A stretch of 64,000 bases of DNA from Klebsiella aerogenes (GTDB taxonomy: Bacteria > Pseudomonadota > Gammaproteobacteria > Enterobacterales > Enterobacteriaceae). Made by a program: the position numbers and the translations under genes. The stretch is taken from contig CP119076.1 of assembly GCA_029027985.1 (NCBI GenBank), positions 1,674,001 to 1,738,000 on the forward strand, read 5' to 3'. The notes beneath the pieces were generated by a model that saw only the letters and a list, made by a program, of their open reading frames with translations, had not been told where the DNA came from and ran no database searches. Positions 23,951 through 50,378 of the stretch are shown here, in pieces; within the stretch, counting starts at the first letter, position 1; every line of letters starts with the position of its first letter.

Positions 23951-24761
23951 TCTTTACGTTATTTATATAATCTTATCTTTGCTAATGCCTAGGAAATCTT
24001 TAGCTGAGGAGTTAAATTTTAAAGACCTAGGTCTTAAGGGAACTTTAAATAAGAATATTCTAAATCATAATGGAGTGCGAAATTATTATATATTTGATGA
24101 AATCGAAGGAGCATTTAGGGTGTATTACCCCGCGGGTTCTTTTGATCCTCAATCGATGAAAAATAAACACCTTCCATATGGAGGCATGAATTTTAAATGG
24201 ACACCATTTTATAATAAGAAGAGGGACTGTGTCATTGTGCAGTATGCTGTTCGCTTTCCAAAATCTTTTGATTTTGTTAAAGGGGGAAAACTACCTGGCC
24301 TATATGGAGGAAATGGAAACACAGGAGGAAAAATACCGAATGGATATGATGGGTTCAGTGTTCGTTTACTTTGGGAAGAGAATGGTATGGGGAGAGTTTA
24401 TGCTTATCTTCCTCAGACAGACAAAAAAAAGAAGTGGGGGGTAGGATTATCTGGCCCGCCGTGGTTTTATACTCGCGGGAAATGGCAAAGTATAACACTT
24501 AAAATCAAGCTCAATACAGTGAATATCCATGATGGGATTGTGAAATTATGGGTTGACAATAGGTTGGTTCTTGATAGGCGTGATATTTTCTTCAGAAGAA
24601 CCCGTGATTTAAAAATCGATGGTGTCCTATTTTCAACTTTTTTTGGTGGCAATAATTCTAGTTTCGCTCCAATGGAACTTCAATATATTGACTTCAAAAA
24701 TATTAAGATATCTGATTGGTTTTCAAAGCAAATGAGATGTGATCATGATGAAACTAATTAA
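23907..24761 (+). CDS. Secreted PL14-like polysaccharide lyase (predicted)
   Basis: 284 residues. The N-terminus carries a hydrophobic segment (FDLYVIYIILSLLMPRKSLA, about residues 14-33), a probable signal peptide, so the enzyme should act in the periplasm or outside. The body resembles polysaccharide lyase family 14 and related alginate/glucuronan lyases (jelly-roll fold): VQYAVRFPKSFDFVKGGKLP, the glycine-rich GLYGGNGNTGGKIPNGYDG, then FSVRLLWEENGMGRVYAYLP, and the strand GKWQSITLKIKLNT. PL14 enzymes cleave beside uronic acids, and this locus can make a glucuronate-containing polymer (ugd). A role in trimming or releasing capsule is inferred. Ribosome site AAAGG six bases before ATG 23907; overlaps the genes on both sides. 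Confidence 0.75.
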   Translation: MQLMNLQNGLKITFDLYVIYIILSLLMPRKSLAEELNFKDLGLKGTLNKNILNHNGVRNYYIFDEIEGAFRVYYPAGSFDPQSMKNKHLPYGGMNFKWTPFYNKKRDCVIVQYAVRFPKSFDFVKGGKLPGLYGGNGNTGGKIPNGYDGFSVRLLWEENGMGRVYAYLPQTDKKKKWGVGLSGPPWFYTRGKWQSITLKIKLNTVNIHDGIVKLWVDNRLVLDRRDIFFRRTRDLKIDGVLFSTFFGGNNSSFAPMELQYIDFKNIKISDWFSKQMRCDHDETN

Positions 24762-25293
24762 GTTGAATGTAAAAAAAATGGTTATAAGTTTTTTTAACTC
24801 TGTTTTGTCACTATCGACATTTTTTAGCATTAGACGATTCGTGCTACGTATCTTATTTAGAGCTACAGTAGGAAATAAGAGTACAGTGCATCGAAGAGTT
24901 AAAATATTTGATATTGGTTGTTTATCAATAGGTAAGCATTCAACAATTAACTACGGTTGCTATCTGGATAATAGAGGTGGCTTGGAAATTGGTGATAATG
25001 TAAATATCTCCCATTGCGTCAAGATTTATACAATGGGTCATGATTTAAATGATCCATTTGCGAACCTTGTAAAAGGAAGAGTACAAATTGGTTCGAATGT
25101 ATGGATTTTCCCTAATGTATTGATAATGCCAGGAGTTACTCTTTCTGAAGGGGCTGTAATATATCCAGGAAGTATAGTAACAAAAAACATTCCTAGCTAT
25201 GAGGTTTGGGGGGGGAGCCCGGCCAGATTTATATGTCATAGAAAGCGTGACATTAAATATGATGCATCTTTTCCTGTTTGGTTTGCCATTTAA
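24745..25293 (+). CDS. Left-handed beta-helix acyltransferase (WcaF/Maa type)
   Basis: Probable O-acetyltransferase for the capsule repeat unit, using acetyl-CoA. About 182 residues from ATG 24745 (a GTG two codons upstream and an ATG one codon downstream are alternatives). Hexapeptide-repeat turns run from about residue 60 to 160 (LSIGKHSTINYGCYLDNRGG, LEIGDNVNISHCVKIYTMGH, VQIGSNVWIFPNVLIMPGVT), with the catalytic histidine probably in MGHDLNDP and the CoA-site GGSPARFI near the end. A basic amphipathic N-terminus (LKLNVKKM) replaces the usual short helix. Overlaps the lyase gene by 17 bp. Confidence 0.87.
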   Translation: MMKLIKLNVKKMVISFFNSVLSLSTFFSIRRFVLRILFRATVGNKSTVHRRVKIFDIGCLSIGKHSTINYGCYLDNRGGLEIGDNVNISHCVKIYTMGHDLNDPFANLVKGRVQIGSNVWIFPNVLIMPGVTLSEGAVIYPGSIVTKNIPSYEVWGGSPARFICHRKRDIKYDASFPVWFAI

Positions 25294-37397: not shown

Positions 37398-38462
37398 ATG
37401 AAGATCCTTGTCACCGGTGGTGCCGGTTTTATTGGCTCAGCCGTTGTTCGTCATATCATTGAAAATACCCAGGATACAGTGCGCGTCATGGATTGTCTGA
37501 CTTATGCCGGCAACCTTGAGTCACTGAGCCCAGTGGCCGGTAATGCGCGTTACTCTTTTTCTCAGACCGATATTACTGATGCCGATGCAGTAGCCGTTCA
37601 GTTCAATGATTTCCAGCCGGATATCGTGATGCACCTTGCAGCGGAGAGCCATGTTGACCGCTCCATTGATGGCCCGGCAGCGTTTATCCAGACTAACCTG
37701 ATTGGGACCTTCACACTGCTGGAAGCCGCCCGTCAGCACTATGTGTCGCTGCCTGATGAGAAAAAACAGAGCTTCCGTTTCCATCACATTTCCACTGATG
37801 AAGTGTATGGCGACCTGCATGGCACGGATGATCTGTTTACCGAAACGACTCCCTACGCGCCAAGCAGTCCGTACTCAGCTTCGAAGGCTGGCAGCGATCA
37901 CCTGGTCCGCGCCTGGAACCGTACCTACGGCCTGCCGGTGGTGGTGACTAACTGCTCTAACAACTATGGCCCGTACCACTTCCCGGAAAAACTGATCCCT
38001 TTGACCATCCTCAACGCTCTGGCGGGTAAACCACTGCCGGTGTACGGCAATGGTGAGCAGATCCGCGACTGGCTGTATGTTGAAGATCATGCTCGCGCGC
38101 TATATAAAGTTGCGACACAAGGGCTGAGCGGTGAAACCTATAACATTGGTGGTCATAACGAGCGTAAAAACATTGATGTTGTGCGTACCATCTGTGCCAT
38201 TCTGGATAAGATCGTGGCGGACAAACCGGGCAACATCAGCCAGTTCGCCGACCTCATCACCTTTGTCACCGACCGCCCAGGACACGACCTACGTTATGCC
38301 ATCGATGCGACGAAAATCCAGCGTGATCTGGGCTGGGTGCCGGAAGAGACCTTTGAAAGCGGGATCGAGAAAACAGTCCACTGGTATCTGAATAATCGCA
38401 CCTGGTGGCAGCGTGTTCTGGATGGTTCTTACGCTGGCGAACGTCTTGGCCTGAATAATTAA
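37398..38462 (+). CDS. rmlB: dTDP-glucose 4,6-dehydratase
   Basis: Second step of dTDP-L-rhamnose synthesis: dTDP-glucose to dTDP-4-keto-6-deoxyglucose. Length 354. NAD motif [29 protein letters not shown], catalytic [15 protein letters not shown] (Tyr-x3-Lys) and [20 protein letters not shown]. First gene of the O-antigen operon, 14 bp ahead of rmlA. Confidence 0.97.
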
Positions 38463-38476
38463 AGAAGGATCTGCAA

Positions 38477-39346
38477 ATGAAAGGTATTGTTCTGGCCGGT
38501 GGTTCCGGTACTCGTCTGTATCCGATTACGCAGGGCGTCTCCAAACAACTGCTGCCGATTTACGATAAGCCAATGATTTTCTACCCAGTATCGGTACTGA
38601 TGCTGGCGGGTATTCGCGATATTCTGGTCATTACCACGCCGGAAGATATGCCAGCATTCCAGCGCCTGCTGGGCGATGGTTCTCAGTTTGGCGTCAATTT
38701 CAGTTATGCCATTCAACCGTCGCCAGATGGTCTGGCGCAGGCCTTTATTATTGGCGAGAAATTTATCGGCAATGATTCCTGCGCACTGGTATTGGGTGAC
38801 AATATCTATTTCGGTCAGAGTTTTGGTAAGAAATTGGAAGCCGCTGCAGCGAAAACATCAGGTGCTACCGTTTTCGGTTATCAGGTGTTGGATCCGGAAC
38901 GTTTCGGCGTGGTGGAGTTTGATGAAAACTACAAGGCGCTGTCGATAGAAGAGAAACCGCTGAAGCCGAAATCCGATTGGGCTGTCACCGGACTCTATTT
39001 CTACGATAACAATGTCGTAGAAATGGCTAAAGAGGTGCGTCCTTCTGCGCGCGGTGAGCTGGAAATCACGACCCTGAACCAAATGTATCTGGCGCGCGGC
39101 GACCTGCAGGTTGAGCTGTTGGGGCGTGGGTTTGCCTGGCTGGATACGGGTACCCATGACAGCCTGATTGAAGCATCACAGTTTATTCATACCATCGAAA
39201 AACGCCAGGGTATGAAAGTGGCCTGTCTGGAAGAAATAGCGTATCGCAATAAATGGTTGTCGGCGGAAGGCGTAGCGGCTCAGGCTGAACGTCTTAAGAA
39301 GACGGAATATGGTGCCTATCTGAAGCGCCTGCTGAATGAAGATTAA
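38477..39346 (+). CDS. rmlA: Glucose-1-phosphate thymidylyltransferase
   Basis: First step of dTDP-L-rhamnose synthesis: glucose-1-phosphate and dTTP to dTDP-glucose. Length 289. Nucleotide loop [37 protein letters not shown], and the substrate region [24 protein letters not shown] segment ([20 protein letters not shown]). Ribosome site AAGAAGGA upstream. Order rmlB-rmlA-rmlD is unusual only in that rmlC stands apart. Confidence 0.97.
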
Positions 39347-39377
39347 TCGTCCTTCCGGCAATGACAGGATACAAATA

Positions 39378-40268
39378 ATGAAGATTTTACTGATTGGCAA
39401 AAATGGTCAGGTGGGCTGGGAGCTACAGCGCGCATTATCCACGTTAGGTGAAGTGGTGGCAGTCGATTATTTCGATAAAGGTCTTTGCGGCGATCTGACG
39501 AATCTGGAAGGGATAGCGGAGACCGTACGTTCGGTAAAACCAGACGTTGTGGTTAATGCTGCTGCTCATACGGCGGTAGATAAGGCGGAAAGTGAACGTG
39601 AACTTTCTGACCTACTGAATGAGAAAGGCGTAGCGGTTCTGGCTAAAGAGTCGGCTAAGCTTGGCGCATTGATGGTCCATTACTCCACTGACTATGTCTT
39701 TGATGGAGAAGGTAACCATTATCGTCGGGAAGATGAGACTACGGGCCCGCTGAATGTTTATGGTGAAACTAAGCGCGCGGGAGAAATTGCGCTGGAGCAG
39801 GCTAATCCCCGCCATTTAATATTCCGTACCAGCTGGGTGTATGCCACCCGCGGCGCCAATTTTGCCAAAACTATGTTGCGTCTGGCGGGTGAGAAAGAAA
39901 CCTTGTCCATTATTAATGATCAGCATGGTGCTCCAACGGGCGCTGAACTGCTGGCAGACTGCACGGCGATTGCTATCCGCGAAGAGATGGGTAATAAGGC
40001 CGTAGCCGGGACTTATCATCTCGTTGCGAGCGGTGAAACCAGTTGGTACGACTACGCGCGTTTTGTGTTTGACGTGGCGAAGGAGCATGGTGCTGAATTA
40101 GTTATCCAGGAAGTGAAGGGTATTCCGACAACTGCTTACCCGACGCCAGCAAAGCGACCACTGAATTCACGTCTGTCGAATGAGAAATTCCAACAGGCGT
40201 TTGGTGTGACGCTCCCGGACTGGCGTCAGGGTGTTGAGCGTGTGGTGACTGAAGTACTGGGTAAGTAA
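39378..40268 (+). CDS. rmlD: dTDP-4-dehydrorhamnose reductase
   Basis: Last step of dTDP-L-rhamnose synthesis, using NADPH or NADH. The start chosen (MKILLIGKNGQVGWELQRAL) gives 296 residues and lies 31 bp after the rmlA stop; a longer frame overlapping rmlA is rejected because its extra 14 residues do not fit the family. GKNGQVGWEL nucleotide loop, HYSTDYVFDGEG, catalytic YGETKRAGE (Tyr-x3-Lys). rmlC is not adjacent but 430 bp away. Confidence 0.96.
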   Translation: MKILLIGKNGQVGWELQRALSTLGEVVAVDYFDKGLCGDLTNLEGIAETVRSVKPDVVVNAAAHTAVDKAESERELSDLLNEKGVAVLAKESAKLGALMVHYSTDYVFDGEGNHYRREDETTGPLNVYGETKRAGEIALEQANPRHLIFRTSWVYATRGANFAKTMLRLAGEKETLSIINDQHGAPTGAELLADCTAIAIREEMGNKAVAGTYHLVASGETSWYDYARFVFDVAKEHGAELVIQEVKGIPTTAYPTPAKRPLNSRLSNEKFQQAFGVTLPDWRQGVERVVTEVLGK

Positions 40269-40697
40269 GCGAATATTATTAATGAGTAAAGCAGACGCTT
40301 CGGAGTAGAGTTTGCTAAGAAAGATCAACCCAAATCATTGAATAGTTGTCTCTAACGGCAGCGTATGCTGTGGACGGTTCCAGGGGATAAACCAAAACTC
40401 TGCGGGGCATAGTATGTTCACCTGCCACCGTTAGAGGATATAGAAACCGTGTGATAAATTTTTAAGATTCTCTGAATCTGAATGGTGGGAATACCATCAC
40501 ACAATGGTTGATAACGTATTATTATAACTATGTAATAGGATTCAGGTATCTGGAAGAAACCATATTTTATTTATCATTTATTTTGACTACCCCATAACAG
40601 AATAATTTCAGACTTGATGTTCAGCCTCTTATGCAACCCTTCAGTATTGTAGGAAATGGTTGGATGCAAGCATTAAAACTTACAAGAGTTAACTCTA
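40269..40697. other. rmlD-rmlC spacer with inverted repeats
   Basis: 429 bp without a credible gene inside an otherwise tight operon. CTCTAACGG (40350-40358) and CCGTTAGAG (40428-40436) form an inverted repeat 69 bases apart, and a short hairpin ATGGT/ACCAT lies near 40482-40497. The part from 40500 on is AT-rich. It may hold an internal promoter for rmlC-wzm-wzt, or mark the junction of two acquired modules. Confidence 0.5.
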
Positions 40698-41249
40698 ATG
40701 AAAGTTATTGATACAGATATTGTTGATGTGAAAATTATTGAGCCGACGGTCTTTGGCGACGAACGGGGATTTTTTATGGAGACCTGGAATCAAACTCGAT
40801 TCGAAGAGTTTGTGACGGGTAAAAAGACTAATTTTGTTCAGGATAATCATTCTAAATCCAAAAAAGGAATCCTTCGAGGACTCCATTTTCAAAGTGAAAA
40901 CACGCAGGGGAAACTTGTGCGTGTGGGGGCAGGGGTTGTATTTGATGTCGCTGTTGACCTTCGCAAGGACTCACCAACTTGTGGGAAGTGGGTTGGCGTT
41001 GAGTTATCCGCTGAAAACAAGCGTCAGTTATGGATCCCTGAAGGATTCGCACATGGCTTTTACGTGTTGTCTGAAAGCGCTGAGTTTATTTATAAATGCA
41101 CTGATTACTACAATCCCAAAGCGGAACATTCAATTATCTGGAACGATTCAGATTTGAATATAACCTGGCCAATTGATGAGGAATATCAATTACTATTGTC
41201 TGATAAAGACATGCAGGGCATATCATTTAAAAAATTTATGGCAATTTGA
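40698..41249 (+). CDS. rmlC: dTDP-4-dehydrorhamnose 3,5-epimerase
   Basis: Third step of dTDP-L-rhamnose synthesis. Length 183, cupin fold: EPTVFGDERGFFMETWNQTR, catalytic QDNHSKSKKGILRGLHFQ (base His and Lys region), VVFDVAVDLRKDSPTCGKWV, and WIPEGFAHGFYVLSESAEFI. More AT-rich than rmlBAD and separated from them by 429 bp, so this copy may have a different history. Its stop is followed after 8 bp by wzm. Confidence 0.95.
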   Translation: MKVIDTDIVDVKIIEPTVFGDERGFFMETWNQTRFEEFVTGKKTNFVQDNHSKSKKGILRGLHFQSENTQGKLVRVGAGVVFDVAVDLRKDSPTCGKWVGVELSAENKRQLWIPEGFAHGFYVLSESAEFIYKCTDYYNPKAEHSIIWNDSDLNITWPIDEEYQLLLSDKDMQGISFKKFMAI

Positions 41250-41257
41250 GGATAGTA

Positions 41258-42034
41258 ATGAAATTCGGTACTCATAATGAGCTTGTGCTACAGATCGCTA
41301 AGCGCAATATCTATTCCAGATATAAGGGATCGACGCTCGGTGTCTTCTGGAGCTTGCTAAATCCACTTTTCCTTCTTGCTGTCTATACTTTGGTATTCGG
41401 ATTTGCATTCAAGACGAAATGGGGCGGTGGTTCACTTGCCAGCTATCCTGTTATCCTGTTCTCTGGTCTGATCTTTCATTTCTTTATTATTGAACTATTA
41501 ATGACAAGCAGCCAGTTAATCAGTGGTAATGCTAACTATGTCAAAAAAGTTGTATTCCCTCTTGAAGTGTTAGTCATTTCAAACTTTCTCGCGCAACTAT
41601 TTAACCTGATGATAGGGGTAATTCTGTTGCTGATTGCTGTAGTGGTTTCGGGCGAAAGTATAGTACGCTCTCTGCTGGCAATGGGCTTGGTTCTACCTCC
41701 GTTTATTATTTTGACACTCGGCTTGTCTTATATTTTTAGTGCTTTGGGAACCTACATAAGAGATATCTCGCACATAGTTAATCTTGCGTCAACAATGTTC
41801 CTGTTCGTCAGTCCTATTCTTTTCCCTCTCAGCGTATTCCCTGAAATTGTTAAAGCTATAGTATATTTGAACCCTATATCTCTGATTGTCATTGACTTTC
41901 GTGCTGTCGCATTCAATATAGAGTCATTCTCATTGCTCAGCTATTTCATCTATTTTGCTGTCGCCGTTGTACTATTTGTTTTTGGACGCTGGATCTTTAA
42001 AAGATTGAGCCGAGGATTCGCTGATGTCGTCTGA
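41258..42034 (+). CDS. wzm: Wzm, O-antigen ABC transporter permease
   Basis: Membrane subunit of the ABC exporter that carries complete O-polysaccharide chains, still attached to Und-PP, across the inner membrane. Start ATG 41258 has GAGG six bases upstream; length 258. Six membrane helices; the family N-terminal stretch NIYSRYKGSTLGVFWSLLNP and the region SALGTYIRDISHIVNLASTM are visible. Overlaps wzt by 11 bp. An ABC route replaces the Wzx/Wzy route used by the capsule genes upstream. Confidence 0.95.
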   Translation: MKFGTHNELVLQIAKRNIYSRYKGSTLGVFWSLLNPLFLLAVYTLVFGFAFKTKWGGGSLASYPVILFSGLIFHFFIIELLMTSSQLISGNANYVKKVVFPLEVLVISNFLAQLFNLMIGVILLLIAVVVSGESIVRSLLAMGLVLPPFIILTLGLSYIFSALGTYIRDISHIVNLASTMFLFVSPILFPLSVFPEIVKAIVYLNPISLIVIDFRAVAFNIESFSLLSYFIYFAVAVVLFVFGRWIFKRLSRGFADVV

Positions 42035-43247
42035 TTATATTGTAAAAATTGAAAATTTAACGAAAGAATTTTATCAATATCGTTCTCCTTTTCATAATGT
42101 CTACAGCTTGCTTAAGAAAATACCCGGAGAAGGGTCGGGTAAGTTTACTGCTGTGCAAAACATCTCTTTCTGTATTAAAAAAGGCGAACGTGTTGGTATC
42201 GTTGGTGCAAATGGTGCGGGTAAGTCCACTATTCTCCAAATGATTGCGGGCACATTACAACCAACACGTGGGTCCATTGAAGTCAAAGGTAAGGTTGCGG
42301 CTTTACTTGAGCTCGGGGCTGGATTTAACCCTGAATTTACTGGCATCGAAAATATTTATCTTTATGCTTCTCTCTTAGGTATTGAGCGGGATGTGACAGA
42401 AAGTCGTATCGACGCAATTTGCGACTTTGCTGAGATTGGGGACTTTATTTATCGTCCGGTTAAAACATACTCCAGTGGGATGTTTGTTCGACTTGCGTTT
42501 TCTGTGGCAATCAATGTTAACCCCGATATCCTGATCGTCGATGAAGCGCTTTCGGTAGGGGATTACCTGTTCCAGACGAAATGCCACCGTGCTTTTGAAC
42601 AGTTCCAGGAGCAGGGCGGAACGGTCTTATTCGTGTCGCATGATTTGACCGCAGTCAGAAATACCTGCGATCGTGCAATTCTTATCGACAAAGGTTGTAT
42701 GCTTTTGGACGATCAACCTGATGTGGTGGTGAACTCCTATCAGGAATTGATGAAAACAAAAGAGATCCAGTGGCTCAAAAGCCAGGTGGCGTTGCGTTCA
42801 GAGTATCGATTCGGGATGGGAGGCGGAAAAATCACGGATGTGATTATCTCGACCGCTGAGACTGAAGATACTACTGATGTCTCTGTGGATCAGTCTATGG
42901 CCATTTCTATTGTGCTGGATCTTGAAATAGCATTTGAGAACCCGGTATTCACTATGACTCTGCGTAATACATCAGGTATTGATGTATGGGGCTTTAATAG
43001 TAGAGTGATTGGCATCGATATACCACCAGGCACCGGAAAACGGAAAATTACTGTGCAGGTTCCAAACCATTTGAGTCCCGGCGCCTATACCGTGAATGCG
43101 GGTCTTATTGATATGTTTGCTGATGGTCAATATCATGAACACGATCATCGCTGGGGCATGAAGTTGTTGAGTATTGTCGGTAAGGTAAAAACAATCGGGT
43201 TTATCAATATGCAGCCGACATTACTTAAACAAGAGGACTTTAATTGA
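42024..43247 (+). CDS. wzt: Wzt, O-antigen ABC transporter ATPase with C-terminal carbohydrate-binding domain
   Basis: ATPase subunit of the O-antigen exporter. Length 407, the long form. ABC domain in the first 250 residues: Walker A GANGAGKST (61-69), signature YSSGM (149-153), Walker B ILIVDEA (169-175) and switch FVSHD. The last 130-150 residues (from about FGMGGGKITDVIISTAETED to the end) form the beta-sandwich that, in exporters of capped O antigens (E. coli O9a, Klebsiella O12 type), binds the modified non-reducing end. Its presence predicts a capped chain and fits the multidomain capping protein encoded next. Stop and next start overlap by one base. Confidence 0.93.
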   Translation: MSSDYIVKIENLTKEFYQYRSPFHNVYSLLKKIPGEGSGKFTAVQNISFCIKKGERVGIVGANGAGKSTILQMIAGTLQPTRGSIEVKGKVAALLELGAGFNPEFTGIENIYLYASLLGIERDVTESRIDAICDFAEIGDFIYRPVKTYSSGMFVRLAFSVAINVNPDILIVDEALSVGDYLFQTKCHRAFEQFQEQGGTVLFVSHDLTAVRNTCDRAILIDKGCMLLDDQPDVVVNSYQELMKTKEIQWLKSQVALRSEYRFGMGGGKITDVIISTAETEDTTDVSVDQSMAISIVLDLEIAFENPVFTMTLRNTSGIDVWGFNSRVIGIDIPPGTGKRKITVQVPNHLSPGAYTVNAGLIDMFADGQYHEHDHRWGMKLLSIVGKVKTIGFINMQPTLLKQEDFN

Positions 43248-45859
43248 TGGCAACTGAGAGACTCTATTTCTCCTCTGATGAGAGCCTTGATATTAAGCAG
43301 AATGCCTATGATGCTGAAAACATCGAAAGGCATGAATCTCGCTATTACTTTGCGGCTAAGCAGTTAACTGCAGATATGTCGGTATTGGATTGCGCATGCG
43401 GTAGTGGCTATGGTAGCGATATTTTAAAAGACTTTTGCCACGATGTTACTGGTGTCGATATTGATCAAAGTGCGGTTGATTTTGCAATATCAAAATACAA
43501 ATCAGATAAACTGAAGTATGTGTGTGGCGATATCCGTGAGATAGCGGATTCTTTGCATAAAGTCGATACCGTCGTTTGCCTCGAAACTCTTGAACATGTT
43601 CCTGACCCTCAGATATTGCTTGATGGTTTCATGAAAGTGCTTAAAGACGATGGCCAGTTTGTGGTGTCTACACCAGTAAGAGAAGTTAGTAGAGAAAACC
43701 CACTCAACAGTTACCATGTTCTTGAATACACGAGTGCCGACCTACGACGTGTCCTGAATCATTATTTTTATCAGGTCGATGTATATCTTCAGGATCAGGA
43801 TAAATTCTATCGTATCGATGACGAGATTTTTTGGGGGTTTGTTGTTGCCGTATGTAAATACCCAAAAAACAGAACTATCGAAGATTTAAGCTTACTGATT
43901 AAAGATAAAGAAACCAAAGTAATGAACAAAACTAAAGAAACATCTTTCATTTCAGAGTCAGCAAGTGTTGCGGAGTCCGTATTGTTTAAACCTTCCTTTA
44001 AAGAGGGGGTTTACAACATTATGGATGGTGTTGAAATTAGAGAGAATGCGGTTATTGAATCTCATGACGGCGGGAAATTGTATGTCGGTGAGAAAACCGT
44101 TATTGGTTATAACTGCTGGTTGAATGCAACTGGCGGAATTAAAATCGGTGCAAATACGCTTATTGGCGCAAATACGATCATTACCTCTTCATCACATCAT
44201 TTTAAGGACCAGATTCCAGTTGTTGAACAGGGCATGTCATTTAAACCCGTAACGATTGGTTCAAATGTCTGGATTGGTAGTAATGTTTCGATTCTGGAAG
44301 GAGTAAATATTGGTGACGGCTGCGTCATTGGGGCAAACAGCGTTATCAAGAATGATGTATTACCTAACTCCATTGTGAAGCCGGTTGACGCAATCGTGAC
44401 GCAGAGTATTGTTCGTAATAGCGTGGTGTTTTATTTACTCCCTTTCACCATTAGGAATGATGCATTAACCTTCCAATGTATTTATGATCGTTATAAAAAG
44501 TTGGCTGAGTCTTTTGTTGATCAAAACTGGGACGTCGCTTTTATTGCAACAAATGAGCTTAAAGATGTTATTTGTGCTGATGGATGGAAGTGCCTTTCGC
44601 CTTCTGATTACAGCCTCTCTTATGATGAAAACGAGTGGTTTGAGCGTTGGAAACGCGTTCTGAATGGCCAGGAGGACTCGCTGCATAGCGCGTTTATAGA
44701 AAAATCACTCGCTGATCTGACTCCACAAATGGTATTTTGCTGGAATTATGATGGTTTGCTGAAATCCTTCTGCCGTGAAAACAATATCACCGCTTTTTTC
44801 AATGAGCTTGGATTGTCACGAGCGCCGAATCCCGTGGTTTATTACAGCGACAGGGAAGGTGTAAATAGTACTAGTGCTTTGAAAAGCTTCTGGAACGAGT
44901 TCGAGAATTTCGAACTATCAGAAAATGAACGTACCATGGCTCGACTGACGTTAGGTAAAGTCAGAAGCAATTACCGTATTAGCGCTGAGCGTAAAGATGA
45001 AATCCGAGCACAGCTTGGTCTTGCTAATAAGAAAACTATCTTAATCGCGTTGCAGGTTGAAGACGACTCCAACATTGTTGCCGGTTCTAAATTTGAATCT
45101 ATGCAGCAGTTTGTCGATGAATGCTTAAGCTATTCACGGGATGATCTTCAGTTTATTATCAAGAAACACCCTGCACAAGGTCAGTGTGCTATTAATGCTG
45201 GGAATATTCCCGTCATTGTCGACCAATATAGCACACCGGAATTGATCGCTCTAACTGATGCTGTTTTCACTATTAATTCTTCACTCGGTTTTGAAGCTTT
45301 AGTCGCGGGCAAAAAAGTATTTACTTTCGGCAATGCACCATATGCAGTAGCAGAATTGATTGTTGATGTGAAAGCAGGTATTCCTGCTGAAGAACTCAAA
45401 GAATTAGCTGGCTATAATGCTGACGATGCTACCTTACTTAAATTTGTTTACCTGACATACCAGCAATATTTCATTAGCGAGAGTAAATTCTTTAATGCAG
45501 AATTCCATATTCGCCGGTTTTTACTGAGCAAATCGACGGATGCTGGTAGTACTGCCTATTTCTTTGATAGTGGATCATACTTTAAGGAGCGTGAAATCCT
45601 GGTTAACCGTTTTCAGAATAAAGTCTTACAGGACGCCATTCTGGGTTATGAAAAATGGATTGAAACGCTCAAAGTTACTGAGAAAAATGCCATGGAAATT
45701 TCTGAATGGGCACAATCTCTGAATTTAAAAGTTCAAGAATATGAAGAGAAGGAAAGACTAGCAGCGGTAACTGCGGTTAGTACTGAATTAACGCAAGAGA
45801 CTAAAAAACAGAATGCCTTACAACGGGTGTTCGGTTTTTTAAAAGGCAATAGGGATTGA
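43247..45859 (+). CDS. Multidomain O-chain terminator: methyltransferase + LbH acyltransferase + KpsC/GT99-like beta-Kdo transferase
   Basis: 870 residues. Domain 1 (about 1-210): class I SAM methyltransferase with motif I VLDCACGSGYGS (46-57), VTGVDIDQSAVDFA and CLETLEHVPDPQ. Domain 2 (about 265-385): left-handed beta-helix acyltransferase, IGYNCWLNATGGIKIGANTL, SSSHHF with a likely catalytic His, VTIGSNVWIGSNVSILEGVN. Domain 3 (about 410-770): resembles the retaining beta-Kdo transferases KpsC and WbbB-GT99; FNELGLSRAP...DREGVNS, the nucleophile-type motif LQVEDDS (602-608), KKHP (639-642) and SSLGFEALVAG (678-688). The last 90 residues are helical and basic, possibly a membrane tether. Directly after wzt, whose C-terminal domain should read the cap. 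Domain 3 and the overall role are inferred from motifs. Confidence 0.75.
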   Translation: MATERLYFSSDESLDIKQNAYDAENIERHESRYYFAAKQLTADMSVLDCACGSGYGSDILKDFCHDVTGVDIDQSAVDFAISKYKSDKLKYVCGDIREIADSLHKVDTVVCLETLEHVPDPQILLDGFMKVLKDDGQFVVSTPVREVSRENPLNSYHVLEYTSADLRRVLNHYFYQVDVYLQDQDKFYRIDDEIFWGFVVAVCKYPKNRTIEDLSLLIKDKETKVMNKTKETSFISESASVAESVLFKPSFKEGVYNIMDGVEIRENAVIESHDGGKLYVGEKTVIGYNCWLNATGGIKIGANTLIGANTIITSSSHHFKDQIPVVEQGMSFKPVTIGSNVWIGSNVSILEGVNIGDGCVIGANSVIKNDVLPNSIVKPVDAIVTQSIVRNSVVFYLLPFTIRNDALTFQCIYDRYKKLAESFVDQNWDVAFIATNELKDVICADGWKCLSPSDYSLSYDENEWFERWKRVLNGQEDSLHSAFIEKSLADLTPQMVFCWNYDGLLKSFCRENNITAFFNELGLSRAPNPVVYYSDREGVNSTSALKSFWNEFENFELSENERTMARLTLGKVRSNYRISAERKDEIRAQLGLANKKTILIALQVEDDSNIVAGSKFESMQQFVDECLSYSRDDLQFIIKKHPAQGQCAINAGNIPVIVDQYSTPELIALTDAVFTINSSLGFEALVAGKKVFTFGNAPYAVAELIVDVKAGIPAEELKELAGYNADDATLLKFVYLTYQQYFISESKFFNAEFHIRRFLLSKSTDAGSTAYFFDSGSYFKEREILVNRFQNKVLQDAILGYEKWIETLKVTEKNAMEISEWAQSLNLKVQEYEEKERLAAVTAVSTELTQETKKQNALQRVFGFLKGNRD

Positions 45860-45865
45860 TTTAAA

Positions 45866-47944
45866 ATGTTAAAAAGTAAAATCAAAAATATAGTGCGACC
45901 GTTTTATTATCAGCTCTCGCCAGCCACACGCGGTAAAGTCAAAAAAACCTATCAACGTGTTCGTGGTATTAATCTGGAATCGCATCCTGTAACAAGTTCT
46001 TTTGCTGGGCATCTTGGTAAAGATAGCGGTGATATCAACGGTGACTTGTCATGTTTACACCAGCTGCATAAGCGAAATGGCGGCTTTGATATCTTGCTTT
46101 TCCCGGTTATTGACTGGGATTTTCGTTTGCAACGGCCACAGCAGTTAGTCAAAGAACTGGCGAAATTGGGCAGCCGTGTCGTCTATTTTTCGACGACATT
46201 TAATGTAAGTACCTCTCCTGGTTTTTCTATTGAAAAAATGCCAGTGGAAAATGTTGTCTTATGTAAATTGAATATCAACAAACATGAAGTCAATATTTAT
46301 AAGGATAAATTGGATCAAGAACAGATCCACTTTCTAATCCATAGCATTTATCTGGTACGACAGGCTTTTGGTTTCGGTTTCACCAATTCAATTATCGACT
46401 TACCATTTTGGCGAGAAGTTGTGGAAGGATTATCTTCTAACAATATAATCTACGACTGTATGGATCACCATGCTGGCTTTGAAAACAACGAGTCCACGAT
46501 GTTGACGGAAGAGGATAAGTTATTCAAATCTTCAGACCTGGTCATCACCACAGCACAACGACTCTCCGAGAGTGTTGCGAAGCATCGCGAAAATATCATT
46601 ATCCGTAACGGTTGCGAGGCAGATTATTTTGCAAAAATTCCTCAGCAGGGTGCTCTGACTAAAACACGCCCAGTCGTAGGGTACTATGGTGCCATTGCGG
46701 AATGGTTTGATCTTGATCTCTTAATTGCAGCAGCAAAAGCCTATCCGCAATATGATTTTGTTATGATTGGCGGCGCAACATGCGATATTACCGCAGCGAA
46801 GAAAATTGATAACATCAAATTTCTCGGCGAAGTGCCCTATGCACAACTGACACCTTACTTGAAGGATTTTGACGTATGTTTGATTCCCTTCAAGCTCATC
46901 GAACTGACGTTGTGTACCAATCCAGTAAAAGTGTATGAATATCTGGCGGCAGGAAAGCCGGTAGTATGTACAGCTATGCCGGAAGTCATCGTGATGGGCG
47001 ATGTCGTCCACGTTGCTGATACAAAAGAGCAATTCATTGCTCAGATTGCTACGGCTATGGCGGAAACGACAGATGAAGATCTGAAAGAAAAACGTAGCCA
47101 GTGGGCAAAAAACCATGACTGGGAAAGTCGCGCACGCCAACTTGGCGATGCTCTTCAAACACTAAACGCGAGTAAGCCTAAAGTCAGCCTGATTGTACTG
47201 ACGTATAACAACCTGGCATTGACGAAAGAGTGCTTGCATAGCATTGAACGAAATACAGAATACGATAATTACGAAGTCATCATTGTAGATAATTTATCTA
47301 CTGATGATACCCGTGATTATCTGCAAAAAAACTATATGGATAAACCAAACTATACGGTTATCCTTAATGATGAAAATATGGGATTCGCAGCAGGGAATAA
47401 CGTTGGCCTCGAACAGGCGACTGGCGATATTCTTATTGTACTCAATAACGATACCTATGTTTCTCCATTCTGGCTTGGTGGCATCGTTAAAGCGTTCAAA
47501 CGTAATCCTGGGCTAGGACTTGTTGGACCGGTGACGAACAATATCGGTAATGAATCTAAAATTAATATTACCTACAACAACTGGTCCGAAATGCATGTTA
47601 GGTCTTTGCAATACATTTCTAACCATGCCAACCAATTGTATCCAATGCGCTGTCTTGCTTTCTTTTGCGCAGCAATACGGCGTGAAGTATATGAAAAAGT
47701 TGGCGGCCTTTCACCCGATTATGGATTAGGCTTTTTTGAGGATGATGACTACTGTAAGCGCGTAGAGCTAGCCGGTTGGGATATGGCGGCAGTAGACGAC
47801 GCTTTTGTGCATCATCATCTTTCTGCAAGTTTTAATAAACTCAAAAATAATCAAAAAGAATTGCTGATGCAAAAGAATCAGGCTGTTTTTGAAAGCAAGT
47901 GGGGGAAATGGAAGCCACATAGCTACAGACCTGGGGTTCACTAA
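45866..47944 (+). CDS. Bifunctional glycosyltransferase (GT4-like + GT2)
   Basis: 692 residues with two transferase modules. N-terminal module (about 70-410) is GT-B: LLFPVIDWDFRLQRPQQLVK, IIIRNGCEADYF, VVGYYGAIAEWFDLDLLIAA, VKVYEYLAAGKPVVCTAMPE. C-terminal module (about 430-690) is GT-A family 2: VSLIVLTYNNLALTKECLHS, IIVDNLSTDDTRDYL, MGFAAGNNVGLEQATGDILI followed by VLNNDT (DxD-like) and LGFFEDDDYCKRVELAG, as in rhamnosyltransferases of the WbbL/RfbF type. Such two-module enzymes usually add the two sugars of a disaccharide repeat in turn; here rhamnose plus a HexNAc would fit. Begins 6 bp after the capping gene. The downstream gene resembles its N-terminal module. Confidence 0.87.
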   Translation: MLKSKIKNIVRPFYYQLSPATRGKVKKTYQRVRGINLESHPVTSSFAGHLGKDSGDINGDLSCLHQLHKRNGGFDILLFPVIDWDFRLQRPQQLVKELAKLGSRVVYFSTTFNVSTSPGFSIEKMPVENVVLCKLNINKHEVNIYKDKLDQEQIHFLIHSIYLVRQAFGFGFTNSIIDLPFWREVVEGLSSNNIIYDCMDHHAGFENNESTMLTEEDKLFKSSDLVITTAQRLSESVAKHRENIIIRNGCEADYFAKIPQQGALTKTRPVVGYYGAIAEWFDLDLLIAAAKAYPQYDFVMIGGATCDITAAKKIDNIKFLGEVPYAQLTPYLKDFDVCLIPFKLIELTLCTNPVKVYEYLAAGKPVVCTAMPEVIVMGDVVHVADTKEQFIAQIATAMAETTDEDLKEKRSQWAKNHDWESRARQLGDALQTLNASKPKVSLIVLTYNNLALTKECLHSIERNTEYDNYEVIIVDNLSTDDTRDYLQKNYMDKPNYTVILNDENMGFAAGNNVGLEQATGDILIVLNNDTYVSPFWLGGIVKAFKRNPGLGLVGPVTNNIGNESKINITYNNWSEMHVRSLQYISNHANQLYPMRCLAFFCAAIRREVYEKVGGLSPDYGLGFFEDDDYCKRVELAGWDMAAVDDAFVHHHLSASFNKLKNNQKELLMQKNQAVFESKWGKWKPHSYRPGVH

Positions 47945-47945
47945 T

Positions 47946-49037
47946 ATGATAGTGGTGTATTTATCCCCGGTTAACTGGGATAGCATTGCGCAGCGTCCAC
48001 ATTTTTTTGCAGATTTTATTGCTGATCATGATGTGGAAAAAGTCATCTGGGTTGACCCTTTGCCTTCCCGCTTTCCGAAGTACTCAGACATTAGAACCAA
48101 AATTGTTGGCGTTGAATCAAAAAGTATTTCGAAGCATGCCAACATTGATTTTATTCGTGTGGGTAATGTTGTTCCTATTGAACCGTTTAACTTACTCTAT
48201 AAGGTGGTGAATTGGGTAACCATACACCGTTTTATTAAGAGATTAAAAAGCATAATTAATGGGCAACAGGCAATATTGGTTGTCGGGAAACCTAGTGTCT
48301 TAGGTCTTGAACTGATTCGCTGTATGGCATTTAATCATATCGTTGCTGATGCAATGGATGATTATCCGCATTTCTTTACTGGTTATGCGGAAAAAAGCGT
48401 CGCGCGTCTCTTCAGGAAACTGCTTGGTAATACCGATATTACAATGTTTTCTTCCGAAGGCTTACTCAATAAGTTCGGTAATAATGCTAGTCGTGCTTAT
48501 CTTGTTAGAAATGCGTGTTCAAAGAGTTTTTATTCTACTATTCAGCGAATAAAAGCTGAACAGCAGGGGAGCACCGATAAGCCTGTTACCTATGGCTATA
48601 TTGGTAGCGTTGCAAAGTGGTTTGATTGGGAGTTTATTACAAAACTTTCTGAATCCAGACCCAATGCCAGGGTGGTTATTGTTGGCCCCCTTTATGTCAG
48701 ACCAGACTATATACCGGATAACGTTGTTATTAAACCGGCAATTGATCACAAAGACGTCCCCGCTCTAATTAATTCATTTACATACGGGTTAATCCCTTTT
48801 CGTATTAATGAATTAACGGAATCCGTCGATCCTGTTAAATACTATGAGTATGTGGCTGCTGGTATCCCTGTTATCACAACCCGATTTGGCGAAATGACGA
48901 GTCGAGTCGATAGCGGACTCGCCGTGACGCTTGAACAGCACTTAGCGGGCGTTGAACCTGTTGTAGAGAAACCCATCTTTTGGGAGGACAGATTCAGCAT
49001 CTTAACGGAAGAACTGTTTGGGATTAAAAGATCGTAA
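47946..49037 (+). CDS. Glycosyltransferase (GT4-like), paralogous to the N-terminal module of the gene upstream
   Basis: 363 residues from ATG 47946, one base after the upstream TAA; a longer frame starting inside the previous gene is less likely. GT-B fold: YLSPVNWDSIAQRPHFFADF, IVADAMDDYPHFFTGYAEKS, YGYIGSVAKWFDWEFITKLS and VKYYEYVAAGIPVITTRFGE. Position by position these match the upstream gene (QRPQQL, DCMDHH, YYGAIAEWFD, VKVYEYLAAGKPVV), so the two probably arose by duplication. Specificity unknown; O-antigen assembly from context. Confidence 0.85.
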   Translation: MIVVYLSPVNWDSIAQRPHFFADFIADHDVEKVIWVDPLPSRFPKYSDIRTKIVGVESKSISKHANIDFIRVGNVVPIEPFNLLYKVVNWVTIHRFIKRLKSIINGQQAILVVGKPSVLGLELIRCMAFNHIVADAMDDYPHFFTGYAEKSVARLFRKLLGNTDITMFSSEGLLNKFGNNASRAYLVRNACSKSFYSTIQRIKAEQQGSTDKPVTYGYIGSVAKWFDWEFITKLSESRPNARVVIVGPLYVRPDYIPDNVVIKPAIDHKDVPALINSFTYGLIPFRINELTESVDPVKYYEYVAAGIPVITTRFGEMTSRVDSGLAVTLEQHLAGVEPVVEKPIFWEDRFSILTEELFGIKRS

Positions 49038-49241
49038 GAGATGTACATTCAGGGAAAGAGGCTAACAAGGTACATTTTCGCTCTAATGAAGACTGTTGGT
49101 GGTGCGGAAAGATGTATCGTGCGTGATGAACCGTAGGTACCTCACACCAGTCCTTGCATGCAGCGGGGCGTAATCTTTCCCCAGGTTACTGCTTTCTTTT
49201 ATGGCAAGGAGATTCAATATGATTAGTTTACGAGAGAAATC

Positions 49242-50378
49242 ATGAGTGCGATTAAAATATTATCTATTTTCGGGACCCGACCTGAAGCAATCAAAATGGC
49301 CCCGGTAGTCGAGTGCCTTAAAGGAGATAGTCGATTCGAAAGTAAGGTATGTGTTACCGCGCAGCATAGAGAGATGCTCGACCAGGTCTTACAGTTATTC
49401 AATATTACTCCCGATTATGACCTCAATATTATGAAGTCAGGTCAGGATCTCACTGACATAACATCTTCTATTCTTTTGGGGCTGCGTTCTGTCCTTCAAG
49501 AGTTTAAGCCTGATTATGTATTGGTTCATGGTGATACCGCTACCACATTATCAGCTACTCTTGCTAGTTATTATCAGCAAATTAAAGTCGGTCATGTTGA
49601 AGCCGGTTTAAGAACCAATGATATTTATTCGCCATGGCCAGAAGAAGGTAACCGAAAACTTACCGGAGCACTGGCTAATTTGCATTTTGCTCCAACTACG
49701 ACTTCCGCTGATAACTTACGTCTGGAGAATGTGCCGCAAGATCGCATCATTATTACTGGCAATACCGTTATCGATGCTCTTCTCATGGTCAAAGATAAAT
49801 TGGCACAAGACTCTGTGCTGGCTAGTGAGTTGAAGGCAAAGTTCGAGTTTATTGATGATAATCGTAAAATTGTATTAATTACCGGACATCGCCGTGAAAG
49901 TTTCGGCGGTGGTTTTGAAAGAATCTGTAATGCGGTTCTCAAGTTAGCTAAAACATTCCCGGATGTAGATTTTGTCTATCCTGTGCACTTAAACCCTAAC
50001 GTGCGCGGTGTGGTTAACTCTGTATTGCGTGGACAGGATAATATTTACCTGATTGAGCCTCTTGATTACCTTCCGTTTGTATTCCTGATGGACGCATCGA
50101 GTATCATCCTGACCGATTCCGGTGGTATCCAGGAGGAAGCGCCATCCCTTGGGAAGCCTGTACTGGTGATGCGTGATACTACTGAGAGACCAGAAGCGGT
50201 AGATGCGGGCACCGTAAAACTTGTCGGTACCGATGAGAAGCGTATATTTGATGCGGTCTCTGCGCTTTTGACAGACCAATCTGCGTATGAAGCAATGAGC
50301 TTTGCACACAATCCATACGGAGATGGCAAAGCATCATCGCGAATCGCTGATGCTATCGCTCACTCTCTTAACGCTTAA
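49242..50378 (+). CDS. wecB: UDP-N-acetylglucosamine 2-epimerase (non-hydrolysing, WecB type)
   Basis: Interconverts UDP-GlcNAc and UDP-ManNAc. Length 378. Family motifs: [89 protein letters not shown] and [20 protein letters not shown] with the catalytic residues. A wecB also belongs to the enterobacterial common antigen cluster elsewhere in these genomes, so this looks like a second, O-locus copy and suggests ManNAc or a product of it in the O chain. The preceding 204 bp hold no gene but contain an 8-bp inverted repeat (49106-49113 with 49173-49180). Confidence 0.93.

What the first reader, a model, noticed from the sequence alone, without database searches (positions are those of the whole stretch)
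43247..45859. 870-residue fusion of methyltransferase, beta-helix acyltransferase and KpsC/GT99-like Kdo transferase in the O locus
Seen: three separate catalytic signatures in one frame (SAM motif I near 46-57, hexapeptide repeats 265-385, QVEDDS/KKHP/SSLGFEALVAG near 603-688) plus a helical basic tail. Known: WbbB-type GT99 enzymes cap Klebsiella O12/Raoultella chains with beta-Kdo, and WbdD couples modification with chain-length control through a tether. Inference: this protein terminates the O chain with a Kdo that is additionally methylated and/or acylated, or uses the extra modules to offer alternative caps. Its place directly after a long-form Wzt fits. I do not recall a described terminator with this three-module order.
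Basis: partly seen in the sequence, partly recalled or inferred. Interest (0 to 1): 0.82.

Follow-up and report, generated by a model that had tools for sequence, protein, structure and literature searches.

The report
Three-enzyme O-chain capping protein
One Klebsiella protein joins a methyl-adding part, an acetyl-adding part and a sugar-adding part that very probably caps the growing O-antigen chain with the acid sugar Kdo, which would stop growth and mark the chain for export; it matters because none of the papers found here describes such a combined cap.

The parts
43247..45859 (+). 870-aa methyltransferase / acyltransferase / beta-Kdo transferase-like protein (P0001)
   Evidence: ORF and translation; Pfam; 34 proteins matched
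43247..43921 (+). module 1, residues 1-225: class I SAM-dependent methyltransferase
43940..44410 (+). module 2, residues 232-388: hexapeptide-repeat acyltransferase; H317 aligns with LacA residue 115
   Evidence: PF00132 E 2.7e-13; LacA 1kqa E 1.1e-14 over 274-400; H317 and W342 invariant in 27/27 and 21/21 rows
44420..45574 (+). module 3, residues 392-776: retaining beta-Kdo transferase, GT99-like
44804..44806 (+). E520 codon, equivalent of WbbB general base Glu158
   Evidence: alignment, 43 of 43 LbH-linked rows; role from PMC9587256 passages
45065..45067 (+). D607 codon, equivalent of WbbB nucleophile Asp232 in QXXXD
45167..45169 (+). H641 codon, HP motif, equivalent of WbbB His265
45584..45844 (+). 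residues 780-866: single long predicted helix, candidate coiled-coil stalk and basic end
   Evidence: AlphaFold2 secondary structure; heptad test borderline, p=0.054 or 0.118 by stretch
41246..42034 (+). wzm, ABC-transporter permease
   Evidence: PF01061 E 1.8e-15
42024..43247 (+). wzt, long form with C-terminal carbohydrate-binding domain; stop overlaps the start of P0001
   Evidence: PF00005 and PF14524 Wzt_C 57.5 bits, cut-off 30.4; sequence
45866..47944 (+). 692-aa GT4+GT2 protein, candidate polymerase; homologous to the C-terminal half of fused relatives
   Evidence: Pfam; 40.7-44.5% identity over 617-675 aa to P0029 and P0036-P0040
47946..49037 (+). glycosyltransferase, 363 aa if started at the first ATG
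   Evidence: PF13692; conserved next to the 692-aa gene in L029, L030, L035
49242..50378 (+). non-hydrolysing UDP-GlcNAc 2-epimerase
   Evidence: TIGR00236 514 bits
50728..51573 (+). GT2, homologue (45-47%) of the 276-aa glycosyltransferase before wzm in the two Raoultella WbbB loci (L058, L048)
   Evidence: WbbL as its name is my inference
37398..41249 (+). rmlB, rmlA, rmlD, rmlC: dTDP-L-rhamnose supply
   Evidence: NCBIfam

Best explanation
The protein is the chain terminator of an ABC-transporter-dependent O antigen. Module 3 takes Kdo from CMP-Kdo by the WbbB-type double displacement (D607 nucleophile, H641 acid, E520 base) and places one beta-Kdo on the non-reducing end, probably on rhamnose, which blocks further extension. 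Module 2, an O-acetyltransferase of the LacA type, and module 1, a SAM methyltransferase, acetylate and methylate the cap (Kdo or the sugar under it). The long helix holds the active sites away from the membrane and the polymerase (the 692-aa GT4+GT2 protein encoded next door), so only chains of sufficient length are capped, and the Wzt carbohydrate-binding domain admits capped chains to the exporter. Since hexapeptide acyltransferases work as trimers (general knowledge), the whole terminator is probably trimeric. Shown here: modules, conserved catalytic residues, fold of module 3, gene order, family history. Inferred: reactions, order, acceptor, trimer, ruler.
Against: No enzyme assay and no O-chain structure. 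PF21912 (GT99 N-terminal domain) does not match the window protein, so a changed acceptor or donor is possible; a related family, GT118, moves pseudaminic acid (PMC12887879 Discussion). The window's Wzt carbohydrate-binding domain matches all solved ones only weakly and is not especially close to that of Raoultella (5hno E 0.095, behind 2r5o at 0.015 and four rows at 0.003-0.005; whose proteins these are is recalled). Its divergence relative to the ATPase domain is much the same against the relative with a degraded methyltransferase (41% vs 17% differing) and one with an intact one (15% vs 7%), so it gives no sign of reading the methyl group. Heptad pattern of the tail is borderline to absent (p=0.054 or 0.118). 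The AlphaFold2 model of module 2 alone matched no structure at E<=0.001. Methylation is dispensable: module 1 degraded in P0027 and P0028, absent in 20 rows.
Confidence: 0.62

Rival explanations
1. Kdo terminator whose acyltransferase and methyltransferase act on the chain, not on the cap: module 3 caps, while modules 1 and 2 decorate the last repeat or repeats of the O chain near the growing end.
For: LacA-, WbbJ- and WcaF-like matches of module 2 are sugar O-acetyltransferases of ordinary sugars; nothing found here names Kdo as their acceptor.
Against: Such enzymes are usually separate genes (general knowledge); here the acyltransferase is locked to one branch of the Kdo transferase in 46 of 46 rows from Beta- and Gammaproteobacteria, which fits a shared acceptor at the terminus.
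Confidence: 0.2
2. Alternative caps: the methyltransferase methylates the terminal rhamnose (as the methyl cap of the O5/O8 type) in competition with Kdo transfer, so two chain ends are made.
For: Methyl alone terminates O5/O8 chains (PMC11231755 section 2); the methyltransferase is lineage-specific and can be lost while the rest stays.
Against: One Wzt carbohydrate-binding domain would have to accept both ends; in Yersinia a methyltransferase also sits beside a GT99, which suggests cooperation rather than competition; neither point is decisive.
Confidence: 0.12
3. Module 3 is a GT99-fold enzyme with another donor (for example a non-Kdo ulosonic acid) or an in-chain transferase, and the protein is not a terminator.
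For: PF21912 not matched; long branches (3.27 and 2.5 changes per column) part it from canonical GT99; GT118 and GT140 show that this fold has other donors and in-chain roles (PMC12887879).
Against: All Kdo-contacting residues checked are kept, including the Arg163 and Arg12 equivalents; no NeuB in the genome and the only CTP_transf_3 enzyme is KdsB; layout and locus as for WbbB.
Confidence: 0.1
4. Module 2 (or module 1) is no longer catalytic and serves as a trimerisation scaffold.
For: Hexapeptide proteins form trimers (general knowledge) and could replace a strong coiled coil, which is borderline here; the relatives P0027/P0028 keep a degraded methyltransferase.
Against: H317 and W342 invariant in 27 of 27 and 21 of 21 rows; motif I Asp48 kept in 24 of the 26 aligned rows that have a residue there; module 1 under strong purifying selection.
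Confidence: 0.08

Closest known systems
WbbB of Raoultella terrigena / Klebsiella O12 (GT99 with coiled coil, GT102, GT103), PMC9587256, PMC11231755
   Same: Same fold and the eight catalytic or contact residues checked in the Kdo module; same chromosomal O locus behind rmlBADC, wzm and long wzt; relatives fuse the module to glycosyltransferases as WbbB does.
   Different: Adds methyltransferase and acyltransferase modules; the partner GTs differ and here sit in a separate gene; PF21912 not matched by the window protein; deep sister branch.
WbdD of E. coli O8/O9a and ORF6 of Klebsiella O7 (methyltransferase or methyltransferase-kinase terminators)
   Same: N-terminal methyltransferase, helical region behind the catalytic modules, neighbouring long Wzt.
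   Different: No kinase domain found; has a Kdo transferase and an acyltransferase instead.
KpsC (GT107) of group 2 capsules
   Same: Same retaining beta-Kdo fold; QXXXD and HP motifs.
   Different: KpsC has two GT modules and makes a capsule linker; here one module, and R525 matches WbbB Arg163, where KpsC is reported to use a lysine from elsewhere.
KrkA (GT140) of E. coli K13 capsule, PMC12887879
   Same: Retaining beta-Kdo fold; reported trimer; its polymer bears partial O-acetyl on Kdo C-4.
   Different: In-chain enzyme, different position of the general base, acetyltransferase separate.
LacA/Maa/WbbJ hexapeptide O-acetyltransferases
   Same: Module 2 matches LacA over 274-400, with H317 at LacA residue 115.
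   Different: Here fused between a methyltransferase and a Kdo transferase.
Census of chain-termination chemistry and Wzt carbohydrate-binding modules (reference 23 of PMC11231755; contents recalled, text not seen)
   Same: Defines the class: terminator with coiled coil plus Wzt with carbohydrate-binding module.
   Different: I could not read it, so I cannot say whether this module order is listed there.

Membership tests
GT99 (WbbB-type retaining beta-Kdo transferase) | GT99 fold | tested here: met
GT99 (WbbB-type retaining beta-Kdo transferase) | Catalytic and Kdo-contact residues R12, E158, R163, N179, Q228, D232, S233, H265 | tested here: met
   43 of 43 LbH-linked rows identical, window protein included
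GT99 (WbbB-type retaining beta-Kdo transferase) | Pfam PF21912 Glyco_transf_99 N-terminal domain | tested here: not met
   not among families at E<=0.1 for P0001; below cut-off 27 in P0048 22.5, P0041 17.7, L036 21.7; listed in the precomputed annotation of P0044 and P0047; WbbB itself 189 bits. Hence 'GT99-like', not filed as GT99
GT99 (WbbB-type retaining beta-Kdo transferase) | Transfers beta-Kdo from CMP-Kdo | not testable with these tools
   needs an enzyme assay; KdsB present, NeuB not found
GT107 (KpsC) | Two GT modules in a group 2 capsule pathway | tested here: not met
   one module in P0001; the only PF05159 place in the genome is P0001
Hexapeptide O-acetyltransferase | Hexapeptide repeat profile over cut-off | tested here: met
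   PF00132 49.4 bits and PF14602 47.2 bits, cut-off 27 each; LacA E 1.1e-14
Hexapeptide O-acetyltransferase | Catalytic histidine | tested here: met
   H317 aligned with LacA residue 115, invariant 27/27 and 21/21 rows; role of that histidine in LacA recalled
Hexapeptide O-acetyltransferase | Left-handed beta-helix fold | tested here: inconclusive
   model of residues 228-400 (pLDDT 72.5) matched 0 structures at E<=0.001
Class I SAM methyltransferase | Profile, motif I and fold | tested here: met
Coiled-coil chain terminator with Wzt carbohydrate-binding module | Neighbouring Wzt with C-terminal carbohydrate-binding domain | tested here: met
   PF14524 57.5 bits, cut-off 30.4
Coiled-coil chain terminator with Wzt carbohydrate-binding module | Extended coiled coil next to the catalytic modules | tested here: inconclusive
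   87-residue helix predicted; heptad test p=0.054 (783-836) and 0.118 (783-866) in P0001, 9 and 10 of 26 rows at p<=0.05; fused relatives have linkers of 148-322 residues
Coiled-coil chain terminator with Wzt carbohydrate-binding module | Capping ends elongation and is needed for export | not testable with these tools
   needs gene deletion and LPS analysis
WbdD | Kinase domain beside methyltransferase | tested here: not met
   no kinase family among 17 Pfam matches at E<=0.1, and modules 1-3 with the helix account for nearly all residues; note that the O7 kinase had no annotation and was seen only by modelling (PMC11231755 passages)

The most novel reading that the evidence does not exclude
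A trifunctional, trimeric terminator that builds a composite cap, an O-acetylated and O-methylated beta-Kdo, on the O chain. It is the three-module tip of a so far unnamed family (acyltransferase plus GT99-like enzyme, a candidate new CAZy family) that caps ABC-exported glycans in Enterobacteriaceae, Vibrionaceae, Pseudomonas and Burkholderiales, with the acetyl group an original part of the cap and the methyl group a later serotype-making addition.
Probability: 0.42. Interest if true: 0.72.

Novelty: new variant of a known kind. Interest (0 to 1): 0.6.

Why it matters
Chain ends decide O-antigen length, export and terminal epitopes. A Kdo transferase locked to an acyltransferase across several genera, with an optional methyltransferase, predicts a new cap chemistry, gives a marker for finding such systems, and makes a clean test of what the Wzt carbohydrate-binding domain reads. 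It also shows one capping engine arranged in two ways: beside its presumed polymerase (window) and fused to it (Cupriavidus, Hydrogenophaga).

Tried and rejected
Chimera, frame error or assembly artefact: rejected; 24 three-module homologues and conserved synteny in L029, L030 and L035. KpsC-type capsule role: rejected. Sialic or pseudaminic acid donor: unlikely.

Led nowhere or went against me. First genome-contig scan with P0001 alone: 14 stretches matched, none encoded a relative. E. coli: no match in 5,426 genomes by blastn, which reaches only about 65-70% identity. Plasmids: 0 of 72,556 records with 80% cover in one place, 631 with partial matches. Class-wide genome search (369 genomes, 92 with a match at E<=1e-10; two candidates scored per genome): apart from the window's own genome, only single-module matches. 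Wzt carbohydrate-binding domain: no sign of change linked to loss of the methyltransferase. Amphipathic tail: p<=0.05 in 4 of 26 rows. My simple hexapeptide regex was weak: 10 hexads, 57 of 2000 shuffles as high, only 4 in one phase where shuffles reached 6; the profile evidence is what counts. Model of module 2 alone: 151 matches at E<=10, none at E<=0.001; rank 1 is the N-acyltransferase AntD (E 0.2, prob 0.08) and many others are pectate lyases, tailspikes and the like; I take it as a bad model from a 31-row alignment, not as evidence against the family. The VIA list for the whole model is filled by modules 3 and 1, so the absence of module 2 there means nothing. Promoter-like sites in 40600-49300: 20, 21.6 expected; terminator-like 9, 6.9 expected. 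Standalone methyltransferase relatives: L032-L034 were fetched and L032's ORFs listed, not pursued further. Papers: so far as titles and starts of abstracts show, none of the papers listed describes a protein with these three modules or an O antigen structure for this locus; this is one library, subscription papers are missing, and only six papers were opened.

Selection in the counts: the 31 canonical GT99 rows came from the patterns FCWN[FY]DG and LQVEDDSN, so their conservation of that motif is partly built in; the LbH-linked rows came from protein search, except L036-L038. Of the 38 loci, 35 had an ORF with the GT profile; L035 (same protein as P0018) was left out of the tree, and L039, L070 and L072 gave no such ORF. 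P0002 and P0026 (a fragment) were not in the alignments A1 and A2; P0030-P0035, P0052 and P0053 were not in the tree. The search tool scored only the 7,993 and 7,992 candidates sharing most words.
Full report
1. Observation. The gene at 43247-45859 (+) starts with an ATG that overlaps the stop of wzt and encodes 870 residues. Pfam places Methyltransf_11 at 47-140, Hexapep at 335-369 and Capsule_synth at 568-741, all over their cut-offs. phmmer against PDB finds LacA (1kqa, E 1.1e-14, query 274-400), WbbB-GT99 (5fa0/8cse, 2.5e-7, query 598-712), KpsC (6mgd, 3.8e-6) and several methyltransferases (the table calls 5fa0 a putative N-acetyl glucosaminyl transferase, and names it as WbbB).

3. Donor. 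The genome (5.0 Mb, 2 contigs) has no NeuB-family synthase (0 of 1; the control rang in 9 of 14 genomes) and one CTP_transf_3 enzyme, which is KdsB (TIGR00466, 436 bits, cut-off 155). P0001 is the only PF05159 place. CMP-Kdo is therefore the obvious donor. This is a strong inference, not a demonstration.

4. Family. Of 34 proteins found with the whole sequence, 24 (P0002-P0025) have all three modules at 57-96% identity, with names from Klebsiella aerogenes, Scandinavium, Atlantibacter, Vibrio cholerae and Enterovibrio; P0026 is a fragment that starts inside module 1; P0027 and P0028 (the latter named [Enterobacter] lignolyticus) keep modules 2 and 3 but have a shortened module 1 with damaged motif I and no Pfam methyltransferase match; P0029 lacks module 1; P0030-P0034 match in module 1 only and P0035 in module 3 only. 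A search with residues 388-830 only found 46 proteins: 44 carry module 2 and two (P0052, P0053) do not (profile check). The more distant ones (P0029, P0036-P0051; named ones from Hydrogenophaga, Cupriavidus gilardii, Pseudomonas silesiensis, Motilimonas) lack the methyltransferase and carry glycosyltransferase domains. A tree of 77 GT domains puts all 46 LbH-linked rows on one side of a branch with 100/100 support and all 31 canonical GT99 rows on the other; the 20 LbH+GT rows form one group, and the methyltransferase group needs 2 changes because the two degraded rows lie inside or beside it (rooting is by midpoint and some long branches meet, so only the split is used). So acyltransferase plus Kdo transferase is probably the old unit and the methyltransferase the newer, losable one.

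5. Membership. PF21912 does not match P0001, while it matches R. terrigena WbbB at 189 bits and the Yersinia GT at 98. Among LbH-linked relatives three score 17.7-22.5 bits, under the cut-off of 27, and two (P0044, P0047) bear it in their precomputed annotation. I therefore call domain 3 GT99-like. A profile of the branch finds the PF21912-bearing proteins P0035, P0052 and P0053 at 102, 80 and 64 bits, no reversed sequence and none of five methyltransferase-GT proteins.

6. Modules 1 and 2 look active. H317 (LacA residue 115) and W342 are invariant in 27 of 27 and 21 of 21 rows. Against the G366 gene, dN is 0.031 for module 1, 0.094 for module 2, 0.134 for module 3 and 0.156 for the tail, with synonymous sites saturated (dS not computable or above 2): module 1 is the most constrained. 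Against G084 (degraded module 1; its contig length equals the one given for P0028, [Enterobacter] lignolyticus) dN is 0.658, 0.251, 0.348 and 0.325. The fold model of module 2 alone failed, so its family rests on sequence.

7. Context. The locus reads gnd-manC-manB-ugd-uge(-)-rmlB-rmlA-rmlD-rmlC-wzm-wzt-P0001-GT692-GT363-2-epimerase-GT281-hisIE (gnd, manC, manB, ugd, uge and his names are mine from sequence and position). That the genome is Klebsiella, perhaps K. aerogenes, is my inference from these flanks and from P0002 (96%, named Klebsiella aerogenes). R. terrigena (L058) has uge-rmlBADC-GT276-wzm-wzt-wbbB-hisIE between the same flanks, with GT276 45% identical to the window's GT281. By PMC11231755 (sections 2 and 13, first parts) WbbL adds rhamnose to GlcNAc and WbbB polymerises and caps; the window locus looks like the same plan with other parts. 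The order rml-wzm-wzt-P0001-GT692-GT is kept in L029, L030 and L035; L031 holds a decayed copy. The 692-aa neighbour is 40.7-44.5% identical over 617-675 residues to the C-terminal part of P0029 and P0036-P0040, which fuse it behind LbH-GT through 148-322 residues. A helix motif YE.W[IV]..L..........S.WA..L is shared by the window protein and P0036-P0038 (Cupriavidus type). In Yersinia massiliensis (L040) wzm and wzt are followed by a separate methyltransferase (267 aa) and, overlapping it, a separate GT99 protein (453 aa) whose charged tail looks helical by eye; L043 has a GT99-type ORF followed by a methyltransferase. So methyltransferase and beta-Kdo transferase have probably come together more than once.

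8. Distribution. 4 of 392 genomes sampled in the family, the window's own included; of these, the window's genome and G366 have all three modules intact, G084 has a degraded module 1 and G113 a decayed copy. No match in 5,426 E. coli genomes at DNA level. A rare O-locus type.

9. Mechanism and limits. The best reading is a decorated beta-Kdo terminator working with the 692-aa polymerase, the 87-residue helix as spacer and Wzt as gate. Confidence by step (my estimates): Kdo transferase 0.85, terminator 0.8, acetyl on the cap 0.6, methyl on the cap 0.55, trimer 0.6. Points against are listed with the explanation. Precedents seen in papers: partly acetylated Kdo in the K13 capsule and a trimeric GT140 (PMC12887879 outline with abstract, passages and Discussion); methyl caps and coiled-coil rulers (PMC11231755 outline, passages and first parts of two sections); the QXXXD mechanism in KpsC (PMC10148158 passages); 19 domains with predicted GT99 similarity in E. 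coli capsule loci (PMC13171606 passages); coupling of terminator and Wzt binding module (PMC11127046 passages). No listed paper described this combination, as far as titles and starts of abstracts show.

10. Verdict. Real, well conserved, and a new arrangement of known parts with a testable new cap chemistry. Interest 0.6.

Noticed in passing
L029, L030, L035: After the homologue of the 363-aa GT the relatives carry extra genes, including a GT2-like protein of 318-320 aa and, by Pfam in L029, a PMT_2-like and an Acyl_transf_3 protein (similar-sized ORFs in L030 and L035), as in periplasmic glycosylation sets; the window lacks them, so its O chain is probably simpler.
   Followed up: partly
L031 (G113, 3.46-Mb contig): The same O locus is broken up: the P0001 homologue, the 692-aa gene and others lie in several pieces, as in a genome losing its O antigen.
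   Followed up: no
L040 9836-11981: Yersinia massiliensis has a methyltransferase and a GT99 protein as overlapping separate genes behind wzm and wzt: a candidate second origin of a methylated Kdo cap.
   Followed up: partly
L036, L037, L038: Pseudomonas baetica, P. fluorescens and P. frederiksbergensis carry 1247-1293-aa proteins with acyltransferase and GT99-like module (plus two GT2 stretches by Pfam in L036); in L036 the gene directly follows a wzt-like ORF.
   Followed up: partly
window 24739-25293: A separate 184-aa hexapeptide acyltransferase in the upstream polysaccharide locus, 36% identical over about 100 residues to module 2 of P0001.
   Followed up: no
P0038 (Cupriavidus gilardii): The linker between the Kdo-transferase module and the glycosyltransferase modules contains near-identical repeated segments (TLTTANAE...LR..VAELS.ALERSRAE, by eye), a possible way to change the length of a molecular ruler by repeat number.
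   Followed up: no
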